A DNA stretch of 53,897 bases, from positions 1 to 53,897 of the forward strand of contig JAGQYM010000030.1 in assembly GCA_020436085.1 (NCBI GenBank), written 5' to 3'. This stretch comes from Cyclobacteriaceae bacterium (GTDB taxonomy: Bacteria; Bacteroidota; Bacteroidia; Cytophagales; Cyclobacteriaceae). Under the pieces are notes generated by a model. The model was given only the letters and a program-made list of their open reading frames with translations, was not told the DNA's origin and did not search any database. Within the stretch, counting starts at the first letter, position 1. Every line of letters starts with the position of its first letter. Shown one piece after another: positions 40,774 through 52,055 of this stretch. Both the position numbers and the translations under genes were made by a program.

Positions 40774-42033
40774 GTGGCGATAAAAAACTTGTTCAAGTTG
40801 AGTAACCCTGCGAGAGAAAAAGAATCCAACTACCACCAGTTCGAAGCTGTATTTGACTTCGCCACCATCGGCATGGTGATTGTGAATTCAGATGGTGTGA
40901 TTACCAACTTCAACAAATTTGCTGAACAGCAGTTTGGATACGGCAAGGATGAGGTGATTGGCGGGACCGTTGAGATGCTTTTGCCTGGCCCTATTACCAA
41001 AAGGCATGTAGGTCACCGTGAAGGCTTTGTCAAATCTCCAACCAATCGGCCTATGGGATCGGGCCGTGATTTGTTTGCCAAAAGAAAAGATGGAACTGTA
41101 TTTCCCGTAGAGATCAGCCTCAGCCACTACACACGAAATAATGAGAGCTATGTAATTGCATTCATTATTGACATAACAGTGCGAAAGAACAATGAGATCG
41201 CGCTAAAAGAGTCTACGGATCGAATTCAGCAAATTAATGTGGAACTGGAGCAAAAGGTGGATGGTCGTACCAAGATGCTAAGAGAAACGCTGGCTGAACT
41301 TGAAGGGTCGAAAGAAGAACTGAACGAAGCGCTAAAGAAGGAACGAGAACTCGGTGATTTGAAATCACGTTTCGTTACACTGGCATCTCATGAATTCCGG
41401 ACACCTTTGAGTACTATACTTTCATCGGCATCCTTGATTGACAAATATCTTAAAGAGGAAGAACATCCGAAGAGAAAGAAACATGTTGATCGGATAAAGG
41501 AGGCTGTTGGTAATATGAGAGATATCCTTGAAGACTTTCTTTCACTTGGTAAACTTGAGGAAGGTCAGATCGATGTGAATATGGAGGAATTGACCAACGA
41601 ACAATTGAGAGACGATCTGTCGAGGGTGGTGGCCAGTATGGAGCAATTGACGAAGCCTGGCCAGAAAATTTCTGTCGAATGTTCGGTAACCAGCTCAGTA
41701 AAGTTGGATCGTAAGTTGACTGGGAACATTATTTCGAATCTTCTTTCGAATGCCATCAAGTTCTCTCCGGACCATTCTGAAATTTTTATTCGTTGCAAAT
41801 CTGAGAAAAAACTTTTGTCAATCGAGGTACAAGATTCAGGAATCGGCATCTCAGAAGAAGATCAAAAACATTTGTTTGAACGATTTTTTCGAGCAAAGAA
41901 TGCCGCCAATATTCAGGGTACCGGCCTGGGCCTTAACATTGTGGTAAAATACCTTGAGTTGATGGGTGGGCGCATACTGTGCAATAGCGATATAGATGAA
42001 GGAACTACATTTACTGTTCAAATTCCTCAATAA
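40774..42033 (+). CDS. Soluble PAS-domain sensor histidine kinase
   Basis: The 419-residue protein has a PAS domain (about 20-140; FDFATIGMVIVNSDGVITNFNK and RKDGTVFPVEISL), a coiled coil (about 145-200), HisKA with the phospho-acceptor in LASHEFRTPLSTI, and HATPase with NLLSNAIKFSPDH and GTGLGLNIVVKYLEL. It has no membrane helix, so it senses a cytoplasmic cue. The PAS domain is FixL-like in outline, but the heme-binding His position appears to be Arg. It probably phosphorylates the receiver-CRP protein encoded 70 bases downstream. A TACTTTTA element ends at the base before the GTG start; TTG codons at 40789 and 40798 are alternatives. Confidence 0.88.
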   Translation: MAIKNLFKLSNPAREKESNYHQFEAVFDFATIGMVIVNSDGVITNFNKFAEQQFGYGKDEVIGGTVEMLLPGPITKRHVGHREGFVKSPTNRPMGSGRDLFAKRKDGTVFPVEISLSHYTRNNESYVIAFIIDITVRKNNEIALKESTDRIQQINVELEQKVDGRTKMLRETLAELEGSKEELNEALKKERELGDLKSRFVTLASHEFRTPLSTILSSASLIDKYLKEEEHPKRKKHVDRIKEAVGNMRDILEDFLSLGKLEEGQIDVNMEELTNEQLRDDLSRVVASMEQLTKPGQKISVECSVTSSVKLDRKLTGNIISNLLSNAIKFSPDHSEIFIRCKSEKKLLSIEVQDSGIGISEEDQKHLFERFFRAKNAANIQGTGLGLNIVVKYLELMGGRILCNSDIDEGTTFTVQIPQ

Positions 42034-42103: not shown

Positions 42104-43162
42104 ATGAAAAATATTCTGATCATCGAGGACAATCACGAGGTAAGGGAGAATACAGCTGAGATTCTCGAACTGGCTGGCTATAAGGTATTCACCGCTGAGA
42201 ATGGGAAAGTGGGAGTTGAGGTAGCGATAGACGAAAAGCCCGACCTGATTGTTTGCGACATTATGATGCCAGTATTAGACGGCTATGGCGTGCTGCACCT
42301 GCTGAGCAAAAATCCAGAAACTGCTGTGATTCCCTTCATATTCCTCACAGCCAAAGCGGAGAAAAGTGACTATCAAAAAGGGATGGGCATGGGTGCAGAT
42401 GGTTATATTACAAAGCCTTTTGATGACACAGAACTACTGAATGCAATAGAGACCAGGCTGAAGAAGGCGGAGATTCTGAGACAAACCTTCTCGCAAGATC
42501 AGTCTGGAGTCAATGACTTTATAGCCACTGTGAAGTCAAATACGAATATCAGACTTCTGTCGGATGCTTATGAGGTGGTTCAATACAAGAGGAAGCACAT
42601 GCTCTATTCAGAAGGTTCTCATCCAAGACATCTTTTCTTTGTCAAGAGTGGGAAGGTTAAAACTTACAAAATCAACGAGGATGGTAAAGAGCTGATCATT
42701 GAAATTGCCGGGGAGGGAAACTTTCTTGGTTACACACCGATATTAGAGGACGTCAACTACACAGAGACTGCGGAGGTACTGGAGGATGCTGAGCTAATGA
42801 TCATTCCAAGAGAAGACTTTGTGAAATTGATCTCATACGACAGTCAGATTGCAGGCCAGTTTATAAAGCTGCTTGCAAAAAACGTACACGAAAAAGAAGA
42901 ACGACTTCTTAGCCTTGCATACAATTCCGTAAGAAAGCGAGTTGCATCGGGGCTGATAGAAATTTTCGACAAGTTTAAAGCGCAGATGGCCGGTGATACC
43001 CGTTTGAAAATTTCCCGTGATGATCTTGCCCGGATTGTGGGCACCGCTACAGAGTCATTAATTCGAACTTTGAGCGACTTTAAGTCTGAAAAACTAATCG
43101 ATATTGAGTCGGGGAAGATCGTGTTACTAAGAGAAGACAAGCTGAGGAACATGTCAAATTAA
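42104..43162 (+). CDS. Response regulator fused to a CRP/FNR-type transcription factor
   Basis: The 352-residue protein joins a receiver domain (residues 1-120; phospho-acceptor Asp52 in LIVCDIMMP, ITKPF) to a cyclic-nucleotide-binding-like domain (about 155-270; MLYSEGSHPRHLFFVKSGKVKTY, EGNFLGYTPIL) and a CRP-type winged helix (about 275-340). The recognition helix reads GTATESLIRTL, keeping the Glu and Arg that contact the TGA half-site in CRP and FNR. It should be the output of the adjacent PAS kinase and is the best candidate to bind the dyads at 43679-49177. Confidence 0.9.
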   Translation: MKNILIIEDNHEVRENTAEILELAGYKVFTAENGKVGVEVAIDEKPDLIVCDIMMPVLDGYGVLHLLSKNPETAVIPFIFLTAKAEKSDYQKGMGMGADGYITKPFDDTELLNAIETRLKKAEILRQTFSQDQSGVNDFIATVKSNTNIRLLSDAYEVVQYKRKHMLYSEGSHPRHLFFVKSGKVKTYKINEDGKELIIEIAGEGNFLGYTPILEDVNYTETAEVLEDAELMIIPREDFVKLISYDSQIAGQFIKLLAKNVHEKEERLLSLAYNSVRKRVASGLIEIFDKFKAQMAGDTRLKISRDDLARIVGTATESLIRTLSDFKSEKLIDIESGKIVLLREDKLRNMSN

Positions 43163-43163
43163 C

Positions 43164-43505
43164 TTAGTTCATCTGCTCGGCTTCGTGATTTTGTCTGTCC
43201 AAAGACCAGTCATCTGTTAATGAGATTTCGATCCATATGTTTCCCGATTTGCGATAAACCAGGGAAGCAAATCCCAACCTCGAATCTATTATCTCTCTGA
43301 GTTCTTTCACAGATGTCCCACCAGTAATTTCCATGGGTTCAGTGTTGCCCAAAACAGTTCCAGGTTGAACTGGTGTCAACTTAATAGAGTCCTTTTTTGA
43401 TGGAGTCCTTTTGAAGAAGTCAACCTTTAGGAAAGGGAAAGCAAGATTGAATTCCTTTCTAAAGTCGGCTGCTGTTTTTTTACCATCGATCTTTAGCATT
43501 AGCAT
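43164..43505 (-). CDS. Small hypothetical protein next to the receiver-CRP gene
   Basis: From ATG 43505 the product is 113 residues (a TTG at 43523 would add six). It is mixed alpha/beta with LMLKIDGKKTAADFRKEF, EITGGTSVKELREII and IWIEISLTDDWSLDRQN. No family is recognised. It faces the receiver-CRP gene with one base between stop codons. A dyad of the regulon type lies 174 bases upstream. Confidence 0.6.
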   Translation of the reverse strand: MLMLKIDGKKTAADFRKEFNLAFPFLKVDFFKRTPSKKDSIKLTPVQPGTVLGNTEPMEITGGTSVKELREIIDSRLGFASLVYRKSGNIWIEISLTDDWSLDRQNHEAEQMN

Positions 43506-43678
43506 GTCGTAGTGGTCGAGCAAGATGAAAAGTCGGTTTTAACAATATCAAAGATAGATGCCAGTAACGTCCTCTTTTCATGATTGCAATCAAGGTAGGG
43601 GATGATAAAAATCACACCAAAACAGGCAAGGAAAGAGCATTTACAATTTCCTGGTAAGAACATTTTTAACAAAAAAGA

Positions 43679-43690
43679 TGACTTTCATCA
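43679..43690 (-). promoter_or_regulatory. Crp/Fnr-like dyad upstream of the small hypothetical gene
   Basis: On the minus strand this reads ACTGATGAAAGTCAT with flanks, the best match to the local consensus. The matching -7 element is missing: only TACC at 22 bases. It sits one base from the AI-2E gene stop codon. Confidence 0.45.
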
Positions 43691-43691
43691 G

Positions 43692-44747
43692 TTAATCAGA
43701 GGTGCCTAAAAGTGTCGACCAGGTCTTTAGCTCGGGCGAATTGTCGGTGATTAATTTGGCTATGGCCAGGAAGGGTACGAATAGAATCATGCCGGCAACA
43801 CCCCATATCAATCCTCCCAAAATTATAGCCACCAGCGTAGCCAGTGCGTTTATTTTTAGTCTGTTGCTAACAGCAAGGGGGAAGATGAGGTTTGCTTCCA
43901 GGTATTGAACGAATGAAAACAGGGTGATCACACCCACTGGATACCAAATTGAATTGTAAGTGATCCATGCCATGGTGATGGGAAGTAGAGAGCCGACAAT
44001 GATTCCCACATAAGGCACAAACGTTAAAATAGCTGCGATGTAGCCGAACAATATCGCGTGAGGTACACCGATCAGTAGTAGCCCAATGCTATTCAGTGTG
44101 CCGACCACGAAATAAACAATACCCATTCCCTTGATGAAATTGTAATAGGCCGTAATTGTTTGAGCTAGAATTTTTTTGATTCCTATCCGGCTTTCGATCG
44201 GAAAGAGCATGTAAAGGGCTTTGACTAGTCGCGTGCGATAAAATAAAATCAACACGGAGTAGATGGGTACAAGAATGACCAGAACGAGCGAGAGACTGTA
44301 GACCGAGATCAGCTGCCGGATAATTGAAATAATATCCCCACCTGATTGATTGACGAGTTCCTTCAACAGTTGATTTTGTTGTTCCCGGTTGATGCGAAAG
44401 GTGTTGAATAAGTAGGTACTCGAGTCTTCAATAGCGGCAATTAGTTTTTCTTTGATGATGGACCACTCACTAAGGAAAGAAATGAACTGCTGAATTAATA
44501 AAAAAACAATACCGAGGACAAAGACCATCAAAATTGACATGCTGAAAAGGATCGCGGTCATTCGACTCAAGCTTTTTCCTTCCAGCCAAGCACATATCGG
44601 ATACAAAATAAAACTAATGAGCATCGCGAAACTCAGAGGAATTAATAGCGGTCTTCCGAAGAATAGGACAATACCTCCATATACCATCACCTGCATTATC
44701 ATTAAGGCAGAGTTTCTTCCAGTTTGCCCAAATCTTTGTTTGATCAT
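43692..44747 (-). CDS. AI-2E-family (PerM/TqsA-like) transporter
   Basis: The 351-residue membrane protein has the family layout: two N-terminal helix pairs, a long amphipathic segment, and C-terminal helices with GVPHAILFGYIAAILTFVPYVGIIVGSLLP and the conserved NRLKINALATLVAIILGGLIWGVAGMILFVP. Members export small molecules or sodium; the real substrate is uncertain. A Crp/Fnr-like dyad and TACCTTTG element lie directly upstream, placing the gene in the local regulon. Confidence 0.93.
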   Translation of the reverse strand: MIKQRFGQTGRNSALMIMQVMVYGGIVLFFGRPLLIPLSFAMLISFILYPICAWLEGKSLSRMTAILFSMSILMVFVLGIVFLLIQQFISFLSEWSIIKEKLIAAIEDSSTYLFNTFRINREQQNQLLKELVNQSGGDIISIIRQLISVYSLSLVLVILVPIYSVLILFYRTRLVKALYMLFPIESRIGIKKILAQTITAYYNFIKGMGIVYFVVGTLNSIGLLLIGVPHAILFGYIAAILTFVPYVGIIVGSLLPITMAWITYNSIWYPVGVITLFSFVQYLEANLIFPLAVSNRLKINALATLVAIILGGLIWGVAGMILFVPFLAIAKLITDNSPELKTWSTLLGTSD

Positions 44748-44781
44748 AATCCTGTGCTTATCCTGACTTCGATAAGGCGTT

Positions 44782-44824
44782 CAAAGGTAGAATGGGTTGT
44801 AACAAACAAATATGACTCACATCA
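44782..44824 (-). promoter_or_regulatory. Class II-type regulated promoter of the AI-2E-family gene
   Basis: Minus strand: dyad TGATGTGAGTCA (44813-44824), exactly 23 bases, then TACCTTTG (44782-44789). The dyad centre lies about 41 bases before the expected transcription start. Confidence 0.65.
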
Positions 44825-44927
44825 GTTGGCGATATCCATTGAGGTGATCATCTGTGAGACCAGCAATGCGGGCTAAAATATTTTTTGTGGCCTTTCTTAA
44901 GCAAAGGCCAGTCAAGAAAAAGTTCTG

Positions 44928-44970
44928 TAACATAAGTCACAAAATGATAATAATCAGCTAGTTACAATTG
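44928..44970 (+). promoter_or_regulatory. Class II-type regulated promoter of the DUF6799 gene
   Basis: Dyad TAACATAAGTCA (44928-44939; left half degenerate), 23 bases, then TACAATTG (44963-44970), a near-match to the -7 element. A leader of about 85 bases follows. The remaining 44825-44927 shows no gene. Confidence 0.5.
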
Positions 44971-45062
44971 TTTTGTCATATCGTTGGACTGCTTTTAATC
45001 GGATATTGTCAAAGAAACTAAATGAGGGAAGGCTAAAGATTTTTCACTTAAAATTTAATCCG

Positions 45063-45452
45063 ATGAGAAAGTTATTAGTTGTGTTAATGGCCATGTTACT
45101 GACAACTGTCACCTATGCTCAAGAGCAGCAGCGAGATAGGGATCGCCTTAGAGATCATGTTATGTTAAGGGACGGAAAAGTAATTCATTTCCAGAATGGG
45201 GAAGAGCTACAGCTTCAGGAGCAGCTTCAATTGAGAAACGGGATGTTTGTAAATCCGGATGGAAGCTATAGGCTGAGGAACGAGAAGATGCTGCGAATGA
45301 GGGACGGTGAATGCATAGACATGGACGGCAAAAGATACCGTGACCGTGAGCAATTCGAGAAACGAATGAACATGCTCGAAAAACGTCAGATTCAACGCGA
45401 GAATCAAAAGCGTGAGAAACCCAATAATGGAAAACGGAAAGGTAATAGCTAG
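45063..45452 (+). CDS. Exported DUF6799-domain protein
   Basis: From ATG 45063 the protein has 129 residues; the signal peptide LLVVLMAMLLTTVTYAQ fixes this start rather than upstream in-frame codons. The mature part holds two DUF6799-type repeats (MLRDGKVIHFQNGEEL and LRMRDGECIDMDGKRY with NGMFVNPDGSYRL between), rich in Arg, Asp and Gln. The tail is strongly basic. Function unknown; probably periplasmic. It lies 29 bases before the next barrel gene. Confidence 0.8.
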   Translation: MRKLLVVLMAMLLTTVTYAQEQQRDRDRLRDHVMLRDGKVIHFQNGEELQLQEQLQLRNGMFVNPDGSYRLRNEKMLRMRDGECIDMDGKRYRDREQFEKRMNMLEKRQIQRENQKREKPNNGKRKGNS

Positions 45453-45481
45453 GTGATTAATAGTATACGAGAGCGGTAGCC

Positions 45482-46399
45482 ATGGTGGAGCCACTGAATA
45501 GAATAGGTAGAATGCTTCTGGTTTGGGTGGTCTCTTCTATGGCTCTTTCATTCCCACTTCTCGGTCAAAAACAGCACCAATACGAAACTGGTGGTACGCA
45601 ATCATTCGGGCGAATTGGTTTTAAATACAGGAACGACAATGTATTCTTGGGACGGTCGGATTCAATCCCAGCGCCTTATTTCACGTCACAACTCGGGTAC
45701 TATCATAAAAATGGATTGTTCCTGGACGTTGCTACTTCATATCTAGCAAGATCCGAGGAGAATAGAATCGATGTATTTACGGCTTCAGGAGGTTACGACT
45801 ATCTCGGAAACTCTCTTAGTGCAGGTGGGTCCGTCAGTGCTTATTTTTTTAATGAGAATAGCTACGCTGTTCAATCGACACTCAGCGGTTTCTTAAATTC
45901 CTACGTGGGATATGACTTCCGTGCATTTGAACTGATTGCTGATGGGTCAATCGCACTAAGTGAGAAATTGGACGTACTAACGGGGTTCGAACTACGGAGG
46001 ACGTTTTATTTTCTTTCGGATAGATTGATGGTTACCCCTTCTTTCCTGTTAAACGCTGGCACTCAATACTACTATGAAGAATATTACTTAACCAGGAACT
46101 CCCAGGTCACCAAGGGAAACGCTTTCGGTAAAAAGCAAGGTCAAGGCAGTGCTGGCTCATCTTTCGAATTTGTGGCCATGGATGATTCAAGAAAATTTAA
46201 AGTTTTGGATTATGAGCTGAGTGTTTATACGGTGTTCAAGGCCGGTAGCTTTCGGTTGACGGCAGTTCCTACATTCGCTTTTCCTGTTAATCCGAGTACA
46301 ATGAGGATTGATCAGGCTATGACATTCGAAGAGGACTTGAAAAACATATTTTTCTGGTCTGCGGGCATTGCTTATGTGTTTTATTTTGATAAGCCCTGA
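45482..46399 (+). CDS. Outer-membrane protein of unknown family
   Basis: The 305-residue protein has a signal peptide (MLLVWVVSSMALSFPLLG) and a strand-rich mature part with alternating aromatic residues (YFTSQLGYYHKNGLFLDVA, FSAGIAYVFYF-like end) consistent with a beta-barrel, ending in FYFDKP. No family is recognised. It follows the DUF6799 gene by 29 bases and is probably co-transcribed. Confidence 0.75.
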   Translation: MVEPLNRIGRMLLVWVVSSMALSFPLLGQKQHQYETGGTQSFGRIGFKYRNDNVFLGRSDSIPAPYFTSQLGYYHKNGLFLDVATSYLARSEENRIDVFTASGGYDYLGNSLSAGGSVSAYFFNENSYAVQSTLSGFLNSYVGYDFRAFELIADGSIALSEKLDVLTGFELRRTFYFLSDRLMVTPSFLLNAGTQYYYEEYYLTRNSQVTKGNAFGKKQGQGSAGSSFEFVAMDDSRKFKVLDYELSVYTVFKAGSFRLTAVPTFAFPVNPSTMRIDQAMTFEEDLKNIFFWSAGIAYVFYFDKP

Positions 46400-46429
46400 G
46401 GTATTGGCCGGCCGCGAACGTAACCGTCA

Positions 46430-46472
46430 TGATAACGGTCATTGTCGCTGTGTATTTCGGTTTCTATTTTTA
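46430..46472 (+). promoter_or_regulatory. Class II-type regulated promoter of the HPF-UspA operon
   Basis: Dyad TGATAACGGTCA (46430-46441), exactly 23 bases, then TATTTTTA (46465-46472), one base off the -7 consensus. HPF starts 23 bases further on. Confidence 0.6.
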
Positions 46473-46495
46473 TTTATCTAAAGCAAAGATTGAAA

Positions 46496-46783
46496 ATGCA
46501 AGTCATAATTAAGTCTGTACACTTCACCGCAGGTTCTGATCTTGAAAAATACGCCACGGAGAAAATTGAACGATTAAAAAAGTTTAATGATCAGATTATC
46601 CGGGCTCATGTTACTTTATCATTGGAGTCAGGTTCCAGCCCAGAGAAGCGTTCATGCGAGGTGCTGTTATCTATCCCGGGAGAAGACCCCTACTTAAAAA
46701 AAACAGCTTCTTCTTTCGAGGAAGCAATTAACCAGGCTGCAGATGCATTGGAGAAAGTTCTAAGACGAATGAAACCGAGATAA
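46496..46783 (+). CDS. hpf: Short-form ribosome hibernation promoting factor (HPF/RaiA family)
   Basis: From ATG 46496 the protein has 95 residues: MQVIIKSVHFTAGSDLEKYATEKI, RAHVTLSLESGSS, then KKTASSFEEAINQAADALEKVLRRMK, the beta-alpha-beta-beta-beta-alpha fold of HPF. It binds the 30S decoding centre and inactivates ribosomes in stationary phase or starvation. An upstream start at 46442 would add 18 hydrophobic residues and place the start before the promoter element, so it is rejected. UspA follows after 10 bases. Confidence 0.92.
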   Translation: MQVIIKSVHFTAGSDLEKYATEKIERLKKFNDQIIRAHVTLSLESGSSPEKRSCEVLLSIPGEDPYLKKTASSFEEAINQAADALEKVLRRMKPR

Positions 46784-46793
46784 TCCGATCGCG

Positions 46794-47609
46794 ATGAAAA
46801 GAATTCTGGTGCCAACCGATTTTTCTGAATGCGCAACGGTCGCGAGTGACATGGCGTTGTTGGTCGCCAGACGTCTTGGTGCTGAACTACTCTTTTTGCA
46901 TCTGGGTATCGATAAATCAGGTTACACACATGTACCCGGAAAATCCATCACTCATGTAGATGCGGAATCCGGTCAGGCGCGTTATCAATTGGCTCTGTTG
47001 GTGCAGAAAGCAGAAGCTGCGGGAGTAAAGGCCAGGGCGGAATTAGTGCTAGGTAGTGGGCGCGAAAAAATTGAAGACTATATCGCGCCTTATCAAATTG
47101 ACGGATTGGTCATGGGCTCACATGGGGCTACCGGCTTTCGCGAGACTATTATTGGATCAAATACCCAAAGGGTGATTCGCAACGCCACCGTCCCAGCACT
47201 GGTTGTGAAAACACCTTTTGTTAAGGCTGAAATTGAAAATATAGTTTTTGCTTCAAGATTTAAGGAGGATGTGAAAACATCAATACGACTAACAGTTGAT
47301 TTTGCCAGCAACTGGAATGCAAAAATTCACCTGCTTTTTATCAATCTGGTTAGCCACTTGATTGATGACCGAATTGCAAGACTCATGATGTCAAAAGAAG
47401 TGGAGCCGTATCCAGAGACTCAATTCACAATGAGCATCACCGAAACAAATGATAAAGAATTTGGGATTACTGATTTTGCCTCGAAATCAGGAGCAGACCT
47501 TGTAGCTGTTGCCTTGGTGCCACAGTCGACCGTAGGTAGGCTCATTAACCCAAATCTGGCGGAGCAGCTCATTAATCATGCACCGTTTCCGGTGTTGATT
47601 ATACCATAG
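46794..47609 (+). CDS. Tandem-domain universal stress protein (UspA family)
   Basis: The 271-residue protein has two Usp domains. The first is complete: KRILVPTDFSECATVASDMALLVARR and the ATP-binding motif GSHGATGFRETIIGSNTQ followed by NATVPALVVK. The second (about 148-271) has lost most of the glycine motif but keeps the C-terminal NHAPFPVLIIP strand. It is a cytoplasmic stress protein that may bind ATP. It is expressed with HPF from the promoter at 46430. Confidence 0.92.
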   Translation: MKRILVPTDFSECATVASDMALLVARRLGAELLFLHLGIDKSGYTHVPGKSITHVDAESGQARYQLALLVQKAEAAGVKARAELVLGSGREKIEDYIAPYQIDGLVMGSHGATGFRETIIGSNTQRVIRNATVPALVVKTPFVKAEIENIVFASRFKEDVKTSIRLTVDFASNWNAKIHLLFINLVSHLIDDRIARLMMSKEVEPYPETQFTMSITETNDKEFGITDFASKSGADLVAVALVPQSTVGRLINPNLAEQLINHAPFPVLIIP

Positions 47610-47613
47610 GATG

Positions 47614-47793
47614 CTACCCTCTAGAAATCAAATGTTGAAGTTCTTCAACCAGTTCTTGTTTTTTGGTGAGTTCTTTTCTGTAAGGAGTTAATGCCTGGCC
47701 TTTCAGGTTGTCCAGTTCCAGCGAAAGCTTAAACATGTACTCTTCCAATGCCTCCAGCATGACAGATTTGAATTTTGAATCGAGGGTAAACAT
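47614..47793 (-). CDS. Small charged helical protein, regulon member
   Basis: From ATG 47793 the product is 59 residues (MFTLDSKFKSVMLEALEEYMFK ... LTPYRKELTKKQELVEELQHLISRG), almost entirely helical and amphipathic, likely a coiled-coil dimer. An in-frame start at 47814 is too close to the promoter element. It is convergent with the UspA gene, with 4 bases between stops. The presence of a regulon-type promoter argues that this small gene is real. Confidence 0.6.
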   Translation of the reverse strand: MFTLDSKFKSVMLEALEEYMFKLSLELDNLKGQALTPYRKELTKKQELVEELQHLISRG

Positions 47794-47810
47794 GGTGAAT
47801 TTATTTGTGG

Positions 47811-47853
47811 GCAACTTACAGTCTTCACAAGCTACAGTACATGATCTTCATCA
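47811..47853 (-). promoter_or_regulatory. Class II-type regulated promoter of the small helical protein
   Basis: Minus strand: dyad TGATGAAGATCA (47842-47853), exactly 23 bases, then TAAGTTGC (47811-47818), a weaker -7 match. The start codon follows 18 bases later. Confidence 0.5.
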
Positions 47854-48015
47854 GTAATTCTCCTAACCTACTCATCGGTATTACCCGCTCCCCCTGGTAG
47901 CGTGAATTGTTATTTGACACCGGAAATTGATGACTGCGAAATAGTTGTTTGAAAGACAATAAGCTACATTAGATAGGCGTTCATTAACAAGAACATCCAC
48001 TAAACCTAAACGACT

Positions 48016-48102
48016 ATGACACTTAAGATAAGAATGACATTGATCAAGAAATTAATTGTACTTGGTTCGCTTATTATGATCACCGTACTTTGGCTTGCTT
48101 GA
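48016..48102 (+). CDS. Possible 28-residue membrane miniprotein
   Basis: A 28-codon frame (MTLKIRMTLIKKLIVLGS then LIMITVLWLA) has a basic N-terminus and one hydrophobic segment long enough to cross a membrane. It lies in the gap between the small helical protein and the hydrolase gene, five bases before the latter's end on the other strand. Possible roles are a small membrane peptide or a toxin-like peptide. No ribosome-binding signal is clear. Confidence 0.4.
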   Translation: MTLKIRMTLIKKLIVLGSLIMITVLWLA

Positions 48103-48107
48103 CCAGC

Positions 48108-49148
48108 TCAAGTACCCCATATCCTTTCCGCGAAAGAAAAGATTGATTCCGTTGTCCAACGGGAAAAGCGCCCCCTTTGAATGAGCAGTTCATTGTCATT
48201 TGGGTGCTGCAAAAAATAGTAAAATACAAATGGTGCTGCCGGATCTTCCCATCCCAGCATTTGACCAAATCGAAGATCGTTGAATACCCATCGATTTTCA
48301 TATTGACTCACCACATAGTACCCCTGCGAGAATCGAATCAGATGCTGAACATCTTCATGATCTGCAACGGGTTCAAGTAGATCATCGTTTCTTTCAAAAT
48401 ATTGAAATGAGATTGATTCGTTGCTGTCGAAGACGCTGCGATAACCGATATGATAACCACTATCGCTTTCGGCAACGATGTACCATAGCCACACATTTCC
48501 AGGGGTAGGCGTGGTGAAGTATCGATGATATTTTAGGTCTTGAGCTTCCAACGAAGTTTCGACTTCTTTATCAACGATTTTTTTATTGATCAAACTGTAG
48601 ATCAGGTAAAAAGAACAGATGATAACTGCGATGGCGGACCATCTTACTCGCGATTTGTGACCTTCTGGAAACAGAAAAAGTGCAACCATCACAGTAATGG
48701 GAATTATAGAAAATAGTGGATCAGCGACAAAAAGCGAATTGAAGCTGATGCGGGTATGACTGAATGGCTCAAACCAAGCCGTGCCATAGGCATTGAACGC
48801 ATCCAAAAAAAGATGAGTACACAATTCAATCGTGATCAACCACGCCCAGCCAGATATATTCAACCCTGATGACCATCGCCATCGAGATAGTATAAGAGCC
48901 AATGGATAAGCAGTGAGCGCAACGAAAAGAATTGAATGCGTGAATCCCCTGTGTGCTAACAGATCGTTAGCGGGATTGAGCCAGAAAGATGCAATGAAGT
49001 CAAAGTCCGGTATGGTTTGAGCGACTGCACCAGCAGCCAAAGCCTTTTTGCCCAGAGAACGACCTGCGTAAATTTCTCCAATACAAGCGCCAAGCGCGAT
49101 ATGGGTAATTGAATCCAATACGAGTTGACTCAGTTCGCGTAATTGCAT
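48108..49148 (-). CDS. YdjM/DUF457-type membrane-bound metal-dependent hydrolase
   Basis: From ATG 49148 the protein has 346 residues. The N-terminal half has four or five membrane helices and the family's His/Asp motifs: THIALGACIGE, QTIPDFDF, LAHRGFTHSILF, and LCTHLFLDAFNAYG. A ~120-residue soluble C-terminal domain follows. The family is predicted to hydrolyse membrane lipids or similar substrates. The upstream ATG at 49178 lies inside the dyad at 49166, so 49148 is preferred. Confidence 0.85.
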   Translation of the reverse strand: MQLRELSQLVLDSITHIALGACIGEIYAGRSLGKKALAAGAVAQTIPDFDFIASFWLNPANDLLAHRGFTHSILFVALTAYPLALILSRWRWSSGLNISGWAWLITIELCTHLFLDAFNAYGTAWFEPFSHTRISFNSLFVADPLFSIIPITVMVALFLFPEGHKSRVRWSAIAVIICSFYLIYSLINKKIVDKEVETSLEAQDLKYHRYFTTPTPGNVWLWYIVAESDSGYHIGYRSVFDSNESISFQYFERNDDLLEPVADHEDVQHLIRFSQGYYVVSQYENRWVFNDLRFGQMLGWEDPAAPFVFYYFLQHPNDNELLIQRGRFSRWTTESIFSFAERIWGT

Positions 49149-49165
49149 ACAAGATAGCGAGTAGC

Positions 49166-49208
49166 TGACATGTGTCATACCTGATAATTATTATTATCGG
49201 GAGATTTG
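49166..49208 (+). promoter_or_regulatory. Class II-type regulated promoter of the Na/Pi-PLD operon
   Basis: Perfect dyad TGACATGTGTCA (49166-49177), exactly 23 bases, then GAGATTTG (49201-49208), one base off the -7 consensus. The ATG at 49228 is 20 bases further on. Confidence 0.6.
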
Positions 49209-49227: not shown

Positions 49228-50889
49228 ATGGAGTTTGATATTTCAACCACGATCGCTGGCGTAGGTCTTTTTCTCTTGGGAATGATGTTTCTCGAAGAGT
49301 CACTTCGAAAGCTGGCGGGTCGCACGTTTAAAATATTCTTGCGCAAACAGACCGATAACAAATTCAAGGCTGTTGCAGGGGGTGCAATTGTAACGGGCGT
49401 TTTACAAAGTAGTTCCGTAGTGAACCTGATGGTGCTGGCGTTTGTAGGTGCGGGGATACTTACCATGCAAAACGCACTGGCTGTAATATTGGGAGCCAAC
49501 ATCGGCACGACATTAACCAGTTGGATCGTTGCTACCATCGGATTTAAAATCAACATCGAAGCATTTGCATTTCCGATTGTCGGTGTCTTTGGCATCACGA
49601 TGGCATTGGCGAAAAAGGATTCTGTTGTTTTTCAATGGAGTAAATTTCTTTTTGGTTTCGGTGCGCTATTCGTAGGGTTGAGTTTTATGAAGAGTGGCTT
49701 CGAGCATCTGGTGGGTCAAATGGATTTCTCAAACTTTGGTGATCAGCCCTTGGCTGTTTTTATTTTGATAGGATTCGGCATCACTACAGTAATACAATCC
49801 AGTTCGGCAACGGTGGCAATTACGTTGACGGCATTACATAGCGGTGCGATTGGACTTTTTGGTGCAATGGCAATGGTTTTAGGATCGGAAGTAGGCACAA
49901 CCATCAAGTTGCTGTTAGCTTCCCTGGGAGGAGTTGCTGCCAAAAAGCGCGTGGCCTTTGGAAACTTCATTTACAATGGCGTCATGATTGTTCTGATCAT
50001 GATTGCACTCACCCCCTTACGAAACTTCATTGTGGACGGAATGAATGTCAAAGATGATCTTATCGCGCTTGTAGTCTTTCAAAGTGGTATTAACATTCTG
50101 GGCGTGGTCATCTTCTTTCCCTTCTTAAACATTTTTGGTAAATTCTTGAGTAACCGATTCGCAAATCATGATCAAGGGTCAAAGTTTATTAAGGCTATCC
50201 CACCCACGGTTGGTGGCGATCTCGGATTGGATGCTGTGGCAAAGGAAACAAAGGGACTGCTAATCCTGGTGGTAGATTTTGTGCTGAACAGTTTTGGAAC
50301 CTACGATAGCACCATCAGAAACCAAATTGATCACGAGGTTCGCAACAAGTCAACGCATGAGAAATATGACTTGTTAAAGTTGATTCATGGTGAGGTGCAT
50401 AACTATGTGATCAACTTCAATAAGGGAACGCTTGACAGCGCTGAAGCTGAGTACCTGGATCGACTGGCATCAGCTGTGCGAAATGGTATGTTTGCCGCAA
50501 AAAGTATCAAAGATTCAATGAATGACATCGATCAATTTAAGAATTCATCGAACAATTCGAAGTTTCAGTATTATCACAGCAGTCGTGAATCCGTCAGAGA
50601 GTTTTATCGGAAAATATCAGACTTCCTGACGCATCCAGCTACTCCCAATGTTTTTGAAGACATGGTTAACCTATACAATGAAGTGCATAAAGGCTACAAT
50701 GACAGACTCAATGAGCTATACAAGTCTGGTATGGATACTGACCTCAGTGAAATGGAGGTGTCAACGCTGATCAATTACAACCGTGAGCTGTACAGTTCCC
50801 ACAAAGCAATAGTTTGGGCAACTAAGGACTTCTTGCTGAATCACGAACAGGGTAAATATTTTTCTGAGCTGCCAGGCTTCATTCGTTGA
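49228..50889 (+). CDS. Na/Pi cotransporter family protein with PhoU-like tail
   Basis: The 553-residue protein has the duplicated QSSS motif of NptA/YjbB-type transporters (LQSSSVVNLMVLAFVGAG and IQSSSATVAITLTALHSG), about eight membrane helices (residues 5-310), and a helical PhoU-like C-terminal domain (about 340-545). It moves phosphate or another anion with sodium across the inner membrane, either way. A regulon-type promoter precedes it, and a PLD-family gene follows after 56 bases. Confidence 0.9.
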   Translation: MEFDISTTIAGVGLFLLGMMFLEESLRKLAGRTFKIFLRKQTDNKFKAVAGGAIVTGVLQSSSVVNLMVLAFVGAGILTMQNALAVILGANIGTTLTSWIVATIGFKINIEAFAFPIVGVFGITMALAKKDSVVFQWSKFLFGFGALFVGLSFMKSGFEHLVGQMDFSNFGDQPLAVFILIGFGITTVIQSSSATVAITLTALHSGAIGLFGAMAMVLGSEVGTTIKLLLASLGGVAAKKRVAFGNFIYNGVMIVLIMIALTPLRNFIVDGMNVKDDLIALVVFQSGINILGVVIFFPFLNIFGKFLSNRFANHDQGSKFIKAIPPTVGGDLGLDAVAKETKGLLILVVDFVLNSFGTYDSTIRNQIDHEVRNKSTHEKYDLLKLIHGEVHNYVINFNKGTLDSAEAEYLDRLASAVRNGMFAAKSIKDSMNDIDQFKNSSNNSKFQYYHSSRESVREFYRKISDFLTHPATPNVFEDMVNLYNEVHKGYNDRLNELYKSGMDTDLSEMEVSTLINYNRELYSSHKAIVWATKDFLLNHEQGKYFSELPGFIR

Positions 50890-50945: not shown

Positions 50946-52055
50946 ATGGTTTCAGCCGGTCAATATTCAGACAACAATTGTGTTACCTTCATTACTGGCG
51001 GAAAACATTATTTCGATCACCTGCTCCATCTGATTGGTTCAGCGAAGGAGACACTTCACCTTCAGACTTACATTTTTGAAGAAGATGAGACGGGGCAAAT
51101 GGTGACAAACGCCTTGGTTGCTGCCGTGCACAGAGGAGTTAAGGTCTTTTTGCTTGTGGATGGATATGCCTCTCAGGGCTTAAGCAGGAAGTTTATTTTC
51201 AAGCTTAAAGATGAGGGAATTAACTTCAAGTTTTTCGAACCTCTTTTTAAAAGCCGAAAGTTTTATCTTGGTCGAAGGCTTCATCACAAAGTATGTGTAA
51301 GTGATCTTCGATACGCGATGGTTGGAGGGATCAACGTGGCGAACCACTATAACGATTTGCCCGACAACCCGGCCTGGCTCGACTTTGCTATGGGGGTGGA
51401 GGGTGACATCGTGAGCGAATTGTTTGTGCTGTGTCAAAAAACCTGGAACGGCTTTCAGCCCTTGAGGAAAATTCCGCCACTGAGGAATCGTCCTGTTTTC
51501 GCTATTCGTAAAGGAGATAAAAGTGCAGTTCGGATGAGACGAAATGATTGGGTGAGGAGAAAACAGGAAATATCACGGAGCTACCTGGAAATGTTCAATA
51601 ACGCAAGTTCACATATTACTTTGCTGTCCAGCTACTTTTTACCGGGGCGAGTCTTCAGACGAGCATTAAAGAGAGCCAGAGACCGTGGTGTCGAAGTGAC
51701 GGTGATCGTTGCAGGTAAATCGGATGTGAAAATTTCAAAGTATGCCGAACGTTTTATGTATGAATGGATGCTGGTACGCGGCATCAAAATCATTGAATAC
51801 AATAAGACTGTTCTTCATGGCAAATTGGCGATTTGTGATGATGAGTGGATTACGCTTGGGTCTTTCAATGTAAATGATATCAGTACGTATGCCAGCGTAG
51901 AACTGAATCTTGATGTGAAGGATACAACATTAGTGCGCGAAATCAGGAGCGAAGTAGAGTCAATACTAACCGGGCATACCCAAGCAGTTGATGAAAATTA
52001 TGTTGCAAGTCATACGTCTTTGCTGACGAGGTTTTGCAATGGAGTGCTTTTATGA
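50946..52055 (+). CDS. Phospholipase D-family protein, cardiolipin synthase-like
   Basis: The 369-residue protein has two HxKxxxxD active-site motifs: HHKVCVSD with GGINVANHYND, and HGKLAICD with GSFNVNDIS. It lacks the N-terminal membrane helices of ClsA and resembles ClsB-type enzymes, which join phospholipids to form cardiolipin. It follows the Na/Pi gene by 56 bases and likely shares its promoter, giving a membrane-related stress operon. Confidence 0.9.
   Translation: MVSAGQYSDNNCVTFITGGKHYFDHLLHLIGSAKETLHLQTYIFEEDETGQMVTNALVAAVHRGVKVFLLVDGYASQGLSRKFIFKLKDEGINFKFFEPLFKSRKFYLGRRLHHKVCVSDLRYAMVGGINVANHYNDLPDNPAWLDFAMGVEGDIVSELFVLCQKTWNGFQPLRKIPPLRNRPVFAIRKGDKSAVRMRRNDWVRRKQEISRSYLEMFNNASSHITLLSSYFLPGRVFRRALKRARDRGVEVTVIVAGKSDVKISKYAERFMYEWMLVRGIKIIEYNKTVLHGKLAICDDEWITLGSFNVNDISTYASVELNLDVKDTTLVREIRSEVESILTGHTQAVDENYVASHTSLLTRFCNGVLL

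What the first reader, a model, noticed from the sequence alone, without database searches (positions are those of the whole stretch)
43679..49208. A Crp/Fnr-like regulon with fixed 23-bp promoter geometry around a receiver-CRP gene
Five promoters carry a TGA-N6-TCA-like dyad, at 44813, 44928, 46430, 47842 and 49166. In each, exactly 23 bp separate the dyad from a -7-like element (TACCTTTG, TACAATTG, TATTTTTA, TAAGTTGC, GAGATTTG). The dyad is asymmetric in the same way each time: TGAT-like distal, GTCA proximal to the promoter. The implied centre near -41 is the class II activator position of CRP and FNR. The sites precede AI-2E-family, DUF6799/barrel, HPF-UspA, small helical protein, and Na/Pi-PLD units, and a receiver-CRP fusion gene lies beside them. 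TGA-N6-TCA alone should occur about 13 times by chance in a window this long, so the fixed spacing is the real evidence. The output looks like ribosome hibernation plus membrane and stress functions. Assignment to the receiver-CRP protein is inference.
Basis: partly seen in the sequence, partly recalled or inferred. Interest (0 to 1): 0.8.

Follow-up and report, generated by a model that had tools for sequence, protein, structure and literature searches.

The report
Low-oxygen gene switch, probably FixL-type
The evenly spaced DNA signals are real and recur in this genome and in its relatives; they look like landing sites for a low-oxygen activator, probably a switch made of an oxygen-sensing kinase and a receiver fused to an FNR-like DNA-binding protein.

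Summary
The five dyads and their 23-bp spacing are in the sequence, and the spacing is far above chance: TGAY-N4-RTCA-N23-TAnnTTTG (at most 1 mismatch) occurs 44 times in this genome, against 5 for the backward pattern and 7 at 26 bp. In 101 stretches around receiver-CRP genes, exact matches number 36 at 23 bp and 0.25 per spacing outside 22-24. Commonest families among 121 genes behind such sites are cytochrome c, hemerythrin/ScdA, Rrf2, cbb3-oxidase parts and Usp: an FNR/FixK-like low-oxygen set. The kinase beside the receiver-CRP has a FixL-type haem-PAS domain with the haem histidine in place. Related standalone Crp proteins carry FNR-like cysteines, share the recognition helix, and lie beside the same promoter geometry in genomes mostly without the receiver-CRP. 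Best reading: a FixL-type kinase and a receiver-CRP fusion do the work of FixL-FixJ-FixK, on promoters that an FNR reads in sister species. Against it: the dyad's fixed asymmetry does not hold, two window sites are weak alone, the AI-2E site is not conserved in near relatives, and no binding, haem or start-site data exist. The regulator is inferred.

The parts
40774..42033 (+). PAS histidine kinase, 419 aa, FixL-type haem-PAS (haem-ligand His equivalent = H78), HisKA + HATPase_c
42104..43162 (+). Receiver-CRP fusion (REC + cNMP_binding fold + HTH_Crp_2), 352 aa, phospho-acceptor D52; proposed reader of the sites
   Evidence: Pfam; D52 in 97 of 98, recognition-helix Glu and Arg in 98 of 98 relatives
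44782..44824 (-). Exact site TGATGTGAGTCA-N23-TACCTTTG before AI-2E family gene 43692-44747(-)
   Evidence: not conserved before AI-2E orthologues in 3 of 3 near relatives
44928..44970 (+). Weak site TAACATAAGTCA-N23-TACAATTG (2 mismatches) before DUF6799 gene 45063-45452(+) and 45482-46399(+)
46430..46472 (+). Site TGATAACGGTCA-N23-TATTTTTA (1 mismatch) before HPF 46496-46783(+) and Usp 46794-47609(+)
   Evidence: 2-mismatch counterparts in L082 and L083, none in L081 and L084
47811..47853 (-). Weak site TGATGAAGATCA-N23-TAAGTTGC (2 mismatches) before small helical protein 47614-47814(-)
49166..49208 (+). Site TGACATGTGTCA-N23-GAGATTTG (1 mismatch) before Na/Pi cotransporter 49228-50889(+) and PLD-domain gene 50946-52055(+)
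43581..43690 (.). Three further TGAY-N4-RTCA dyads (43581, 43603, 43679) beyond the 3' end of the receiver-CRP and upstream of 43164-43523(-); none has a good -7 element at 23 bp
46496..46783 (+). HPF/YfiA-family hibernation factor
   Evidence: Pfam Ribosomal_S30AE; NCBIfam TIGR00741 over its cut-off
46794..47609 (+). Two-domain universal stress protein
   Evidence: Pfam Usp

Best explanation
A class II Crp/Fnr-type regulon for low oxygen. Proposed chain: the FixL-type haem-PAS kinase (40774-42033) loses O2 from its haem and autophosphorylates; the phosphate goes to D52 of the receiver-CRP (42104-43162); the activated dimer binds TGAY-N4-RTCA; the dyad ends 23 bp before the Bacteroidota -7 element TAnnTTTG, which puts its centre near -41.5, so RNA polymerase is contacted as by CRP or FNR at class II promoters. 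Targets in relatives are cbb3 oxidase, cytochromes c, ScdA/hemerythrin, Rrf2, copper-type ATPase, Usp and nos genes; in this genome CcmE-CcmF, a Crp-cytochrome c-NosZ unit, HPF and several Usp genes. Shown by computation: the promoter code, its gene set, the FixL-like PAS with haem His, the REC-CRP architecture, the pairing of the two genes. Inferred: O2 as the signal, phosphotransfer, REC-CRP as the binder, activation rather than repression.
For: Code: own genome 44 against 5 backward; 101 stretches, exact 36 at 23, 9 at 24, 2 at 22, 0.25 per other spacing, control dyads 0-1 at 23; 39 genomes 105 against 6 backward (summed). Site density near receiver-CRP genes is about 28 times the average of the 39 genomes, though the genome sets differ. 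Genes behind 121 sites: Cytochrom_C 18, hemerythrin 13, ScdA_N 12, Rrf2 10, CBB3 10, Usp 8, COX1 5, FixO 5, FixS 3, E1-E2 ATPase 4, nos propeller 2. Pairing: a kinase homologue directly upstream of the receiver-CRP in 75 of 97 loci where it was called, of 100 examined. Haem His 76 of 76, FixL distal Arg equivalent 51 of 76, D52 97 of 98. A dyad within 200 bp upstream of the kinase start in 21 of 74, against 0-2 of 74 for seven control patterns. Genomes with the receiver-CRP but no FNR-like protein keep the code at 0.55 exact sites per Mb, against 0.15 where neither was found (from hand-made classes).
Against: No expression, binding, haem or start-site data. FNR-like-only genomes have the code at 0.81 per Mb, so the code is not specific to the receiver-CRP. 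Other Crp proteins exist in this genome; the one in the nos unit also has Glu and Arg in the recognition helix. Site turnover is high: AI-2E site absent in 3 of 3 near relatives. The window's own kinase gene has no good site upstream (best 4 mismatches). The distal Arg is missing in 25 of 76 kinases, and a pairwise check gave His in 74 of 76 alignments. About 11 of the 44 own-genome sites lie inside open frames. 22 of 97 loci lack a called adjacent kinase.
Confidence: 0.68

Rival explanations
1. The code is real but another Crp/Fnr protein reads it here, for instance the Crp of the nos unit (G000 C55), and the receiver-CRP controls few or other genes.
For: The C55 Crp has E..IR in its recognition helix and two tandem sites upstream or at its start. 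FNR-like-only genomes carry the code without a receiver-CRP.
Against: No 4-Cys FNR-like relative was found in this genome: the best match of the FNR-like query is the receiver-CRP itself, and the four other Crp proteins compared are 19-23% identical to it. Sites cluster around receiver-CRP genes, and receiver-CRP and FNR-like proteins have nearly the same helix.
Confidence: 0.2
2. The kinase senses something other than O2, such as NO, CO or redox state, through the haem or without it.
For: The Arg that FixL uses at the distal side is replaced in 25 of 76 kinases. NO- and N2O-related genes (ScdA, nos) are among the targets.
Against: FixL entries are the first seven of 17 PDB matches of the PAS; the window kinase keeps His and Arg; cbb3 oxidase genes are typical O2 targets.
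Confidence: 0.17
3. Some or all of the five window sites are coincidences in AT-rich intergenic DNA, even though the genome-wide code is real.
For: Sites 44928 and 47842 have 2 mismatches, a class with 6 hits at 23 bp and 6 at 24 in the window. AI-2E site not conserved.
Against: 3 sites with at most 1 mismatch in 53.9 kb against 0.51 expected from the rest of the genome, P 0.015; 11 of 13 TGAY-N4-RTCA dyads of the window fall in 7 kb.
Confidence: 0.3

Closest known systems
FixL-FixJ-FixK cascade of Alphaproteobacteria
   Same: Haem-PAS kinase with the proximal His (His194 SmFixL / His200 BjFixL, passages of PMC10765370); regulon with cco/cbb3, hemN, nos, cytochrome genes (passages of PMC4999443); Crp-type output lacking Fe-S cysteines.
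   Different: Receiver and Crp output are one protein, so there is no FixJ LuxR-type output and no separate FixK; promoter is of the Bacteroidota type (TAnnTTTG); gene set also holds HPF and Usp.
FNR / FnrN
   Same: TGA-N6-TCA core, class II spacing, anaerobic gene set; close relatives L050-L060 carry CxxC and a further Cys at the position I take for FNR C122 (position recalled) and share the recognition helix.
   Different: The receiver-CRP has no N-terminal Cys pair and carries a receiver with a phospho-acceptor instead.
Crp-family class II activators in general (E. coli CRP)
   Same: Fold and the inferred -41.5 position (recalled).
   Different: Input is a receiver; cAMP binding was not examined.
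DosS/DosT-DosR type hypoxia systems
   Same: Two-component O2 sensing with Usp and dormancy genes (recalled).
   Different: DosR has a LuxR-type output and the kinases use GAF haem domains (recalled, not tested).

Membership tests
FixL | PAS domain of the FixL haem type | tested here: met
FixL | Proximal haem histidine | tested here: met
   H78 of the window; 76 of 76 by multiple alignment, 74 of 76 by pairwise alignment; H78 lies in helix 72-87 of the model
FixL | Distal O2-contacting Arg (R214 Sm / R220 Bj, numbers recalled) | tested here: met
   Present in the window kinase; 51 of 76 overall
FixL | Curated family score (NCBIfam NF041777) | tested here: not met
   111.7 bits against a cut-off of 850: FixL-like, not filed as the rhizobial equivalog
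FixL | Binds haem, kinase switched by O2 | not testable with these tools
   needs protein
FixJ | Receiver plus LuxR-type output | tested here: not met
   Output is cNMP_binding + HTH_Crp_2
FixK / FNR (Crp-Fnr superfamily) | Crp fold with HTH_Crp | tested here: met
   Pfam over cut-offs
FixK / FNR (Crp-Fnr superfamily) | Curated Fnr or FixK family score | tested here: not met
   FixK model 70.5 bits against 300, Fnr model 66.5 against 228
FNR | Fe-S cysteines | tested here: not met
   Second Cys column is a gap in 98 of 98 receiver-CRPs; C112 column mostly M, V, A, L, I. The standalone relatives have them: 10 of 10 for C10, C13 and C112
Class II activator promoters | Dyad centre near -41.5 | tested here: inconclusive
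   Fixed 23 bp to the -7 element fits, but no start site is mapped

The most novel reading that the evidence does not exclude
In this branch of Bacteroidota the oxygen regulator has been exchanged while the promoters stayed: a 4-Cys FNR-like activator in some species and a FixL-type kinase with its own receiver fused to the FNR-type DNA reader in others use one cis-code (TGAY-N4-RTCA-N23-TAnnTTTG). That would be an independent parallel to the replacement of FnrN by FixLJ-FixK in Caulobacteriales, but with the cascade shortened to two proteins.
Probability: 0.5. Interest if true: 0.75.

Novelty: new variant of a known kind. Interest (0 to 1): 0.62.

Why it matters
It gives a testable promoter code for low-oxygen control in a group of Bacteroidota, ties ribosome hibernation and Usp proteins to it, and suggests a two-protein version of the FixL-FixJ-FixK cascade. 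If the exchange of regulators on conserved promoters holds, it is a clean case for studying how a regulon survives the replacement of its sensor.

Tried and rejected
Fixed asymmetry of the dyad: rejected. A missing or present -33 element as a mark of these promoters: 0 of 121 sites have TTTG at the tested spacing, but only 4 of 138 other TAnnTTTG sites do, so it does not discriminate. Strict mutual exclusion of receiver-CRP and FNR-like proteins: holds in the 25 own-genus genomes (14 receiver-CRP, one of them a partial copy; 10 FNR-like; 0 both; 1 neither), but a later draw from the same genus, G088, has both, and over 148 genomes of the order it is only a tendency: both 18, receiver-CRP only 48, FNR-like only 43, neither 39; Fisher P 0.0025, without correction for kinship (classes and site counts were copied by hand). 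The 148-genome pattern search gave 381 exact sites against 20 backward by my count. Footprinting of the window promoters in the four nearest loci L081-L084: a downstream Usp-like gene has a site with 1-2 mismatches in 4 of 4, HPF with 2 in 2 of 4, AI-2E none in 3 of 3, 43164-43523 homologue an exact one in 1 of 4. A control set of non-partner PAS kinases for the haem His was too small to use. Foldseek with the whole kinase is dominated by the kinase core. No solved chain among the 60 of 254 shown has a best-matching stretch that spans both receiver and Crp parts. Literature: ten searches listed no paper that I recognised as describing a Bacteroidota haem-PAS kinase with a receiver-CRP; two searches returned nothing. 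Only passages of PMC4999443 and PMC10765370 were read; the rest were seen as listings. Response regulators with Crp-type output may be in censuses that I did not find.
Full report
What was checked. Three fit TGAY-N4-RTCA-N23-TAnnTTTG with 0 or 1 mismatch (44813, 46430, 49166) and two with 2 mismatches (44928, 47842). In the window alone the spacing would not convince. TGA-N6-TCA is itself over-represented there, 46 against 24.1 +/- 4.7 in shuffles, and 11 of the 13 TGAY-N4-RTCA dyads lie between 43581 and 50534, next to the receiver-CRP gene. In 100 stretches around receiver-CRP genes the 4-bp gap stands out: 450 dyads against 98-207 for gaps of 0-10 bp.

Genome-wide tests. In the window's genome (4.42 Mb, 191 contigs) there are 44 matches with at most 1 mismatch at 23 bp against 5 for the backward pattern, and 7 against 2 at 26 bp. 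About 11 of the 44 lie inside long open frames, so roughly thirty may be promoters. In 39 genomes 17 of 76 matches of a wide-spacing pattern fall on 23 bp, 1.8 expected, and the exact pattern gives 105 against 6 backward. In 101 stretches (1.88 Mb: the window, 20 stretches from 39-genome relatives, and 80 loci of named genomes) exact matches number 36 at 23 bp, 9 at 24, 2 at 22, and 0.25 at each other spacing, while control dyads give 0-1 at 23 with the full octamer. With up to 1 mismatch and a gene behind, 122 at 23 bp against about 4.6 per spacing outside 22-24. Some loci are from the same species or share orthologous promoters, so these are not all independent.

What the sites control. The 121 genes behind them in the stretches were scanned together: Cytochrom_C 18, hemerythrin 13, ScdA_N 12, Rrf2 10, cbb3-type cytochrome 10, Usp 8, radical SAM 7, COX1 5, FixO 5, E1-E2 ATPase 4, YgaP-like 4, FixS 3, nos propeller 2, with 78 families in all and 25 shown. 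In the own genome the genes behind sites include CcmE followed by CcmF (an exact site), Usp in three places besides the one behind HPF, a Crp-cytochrome c-NosZ unit with two tandem sites, metallo-beta-lactamase/rhodanese, YgaP-like, thioredoxin, PPK2 and TauE, and also unrelated-looking ones such as phosphoglucomutase, AICARFT and enoyl-CoA hydratase that may be chance. This is the content of an FNR or FixK regulon (PMC4999443, passages).

An FNR-like counterpart. The nearest standalone relatives of the Crp part (L050-L060, 35-42% identical) have an N-terminal CxxC in 11 of 11 and Cys at the position that I take for FNR C122 (recalled). In a tree with four other Crp proteins of the window's genome as outgroup, 98 receiver-CRPs form one clade (support 0.81), 10 FNR-like proteins another (0.98), and the two join (0.96). 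Recognition-helix Glu and Arg are the same in 98 of 98 and 10 of 10. In 15 stretches around FNR-like genes the 23-bp site occurs 12 times against 1.8 per spacing outside 22-24; 9 of the 12 genes behind were scanned and 7 are Usp. In the 10 own-genus genomes with it, a site lies beside the FNR-like gene in 9. So one cis-code appears to serve two kinds of sensor.

Distribution. Of 25 own-genus genomes, 14 have the receiver-CRP (one partial), 10 the FNR-like protein, none both, one neither; G088, drawn later, has both. Over 148 genomes of the order the separation is only a tendency (18 both, 48 and 43 one, 39 neither), and exact sites per Mb are 0.55 with receiver-CRP only, 0.81 with FNR-like only, 0.66 with both and 0.15 with neither.

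Reading. The likeliest account is a class II low-oxygen regulon run by a FixL-type kinase and a receiver fused to an FNR-type reader. The promoter code and the gene set are shown by computation. The signal (O2), the phosphotransfer and the identity of the binder are inferred. It works like FixL-FixJ-FixK; it is not filed as FixJ or FNR, because the LuxR-type output and the Fe-S cysteines were tested and not met, and curated FixL, FixK and Fnr cut-offs were not reached. CRP, FNR and Bacteroidota promoter numbers (-41.5, -7 element) are recalled.

Noticed in passing
L213:7878-11196 (G000 contig C55): A Crp-cytochrome c-NosZ unit with two tandem 23-bp sites; the Crp has the same Glu/Ile/Arg pattern in its recognition helix and is the main rival reader.
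   Followed up: partly
L217:2153-3015 (G000 contig C120): A 258-aa gene without a Pfam match has two sites (2153, 2285) at its start.
   Followed up: no
L219-L227: In 9 of 10 own-genus genomes with the FNR-like Crp, a 23-bp site lies beside it; the gene behind is Usp in all 7 of these that were scanned (L223 and L224 were not).
   Followed up: yes
window 47614-47814: Small protein of at most 66 aa with no Pfam match, behind a weak site; its -7-like octamer would leave a very short leader.
   Followed up: no
window 43581-43690: Three TGAY-N4-RTCA dyads in about 110 bp without a good -7 element at 23 bp; possibly repression or another regulator.
   Followed up: no
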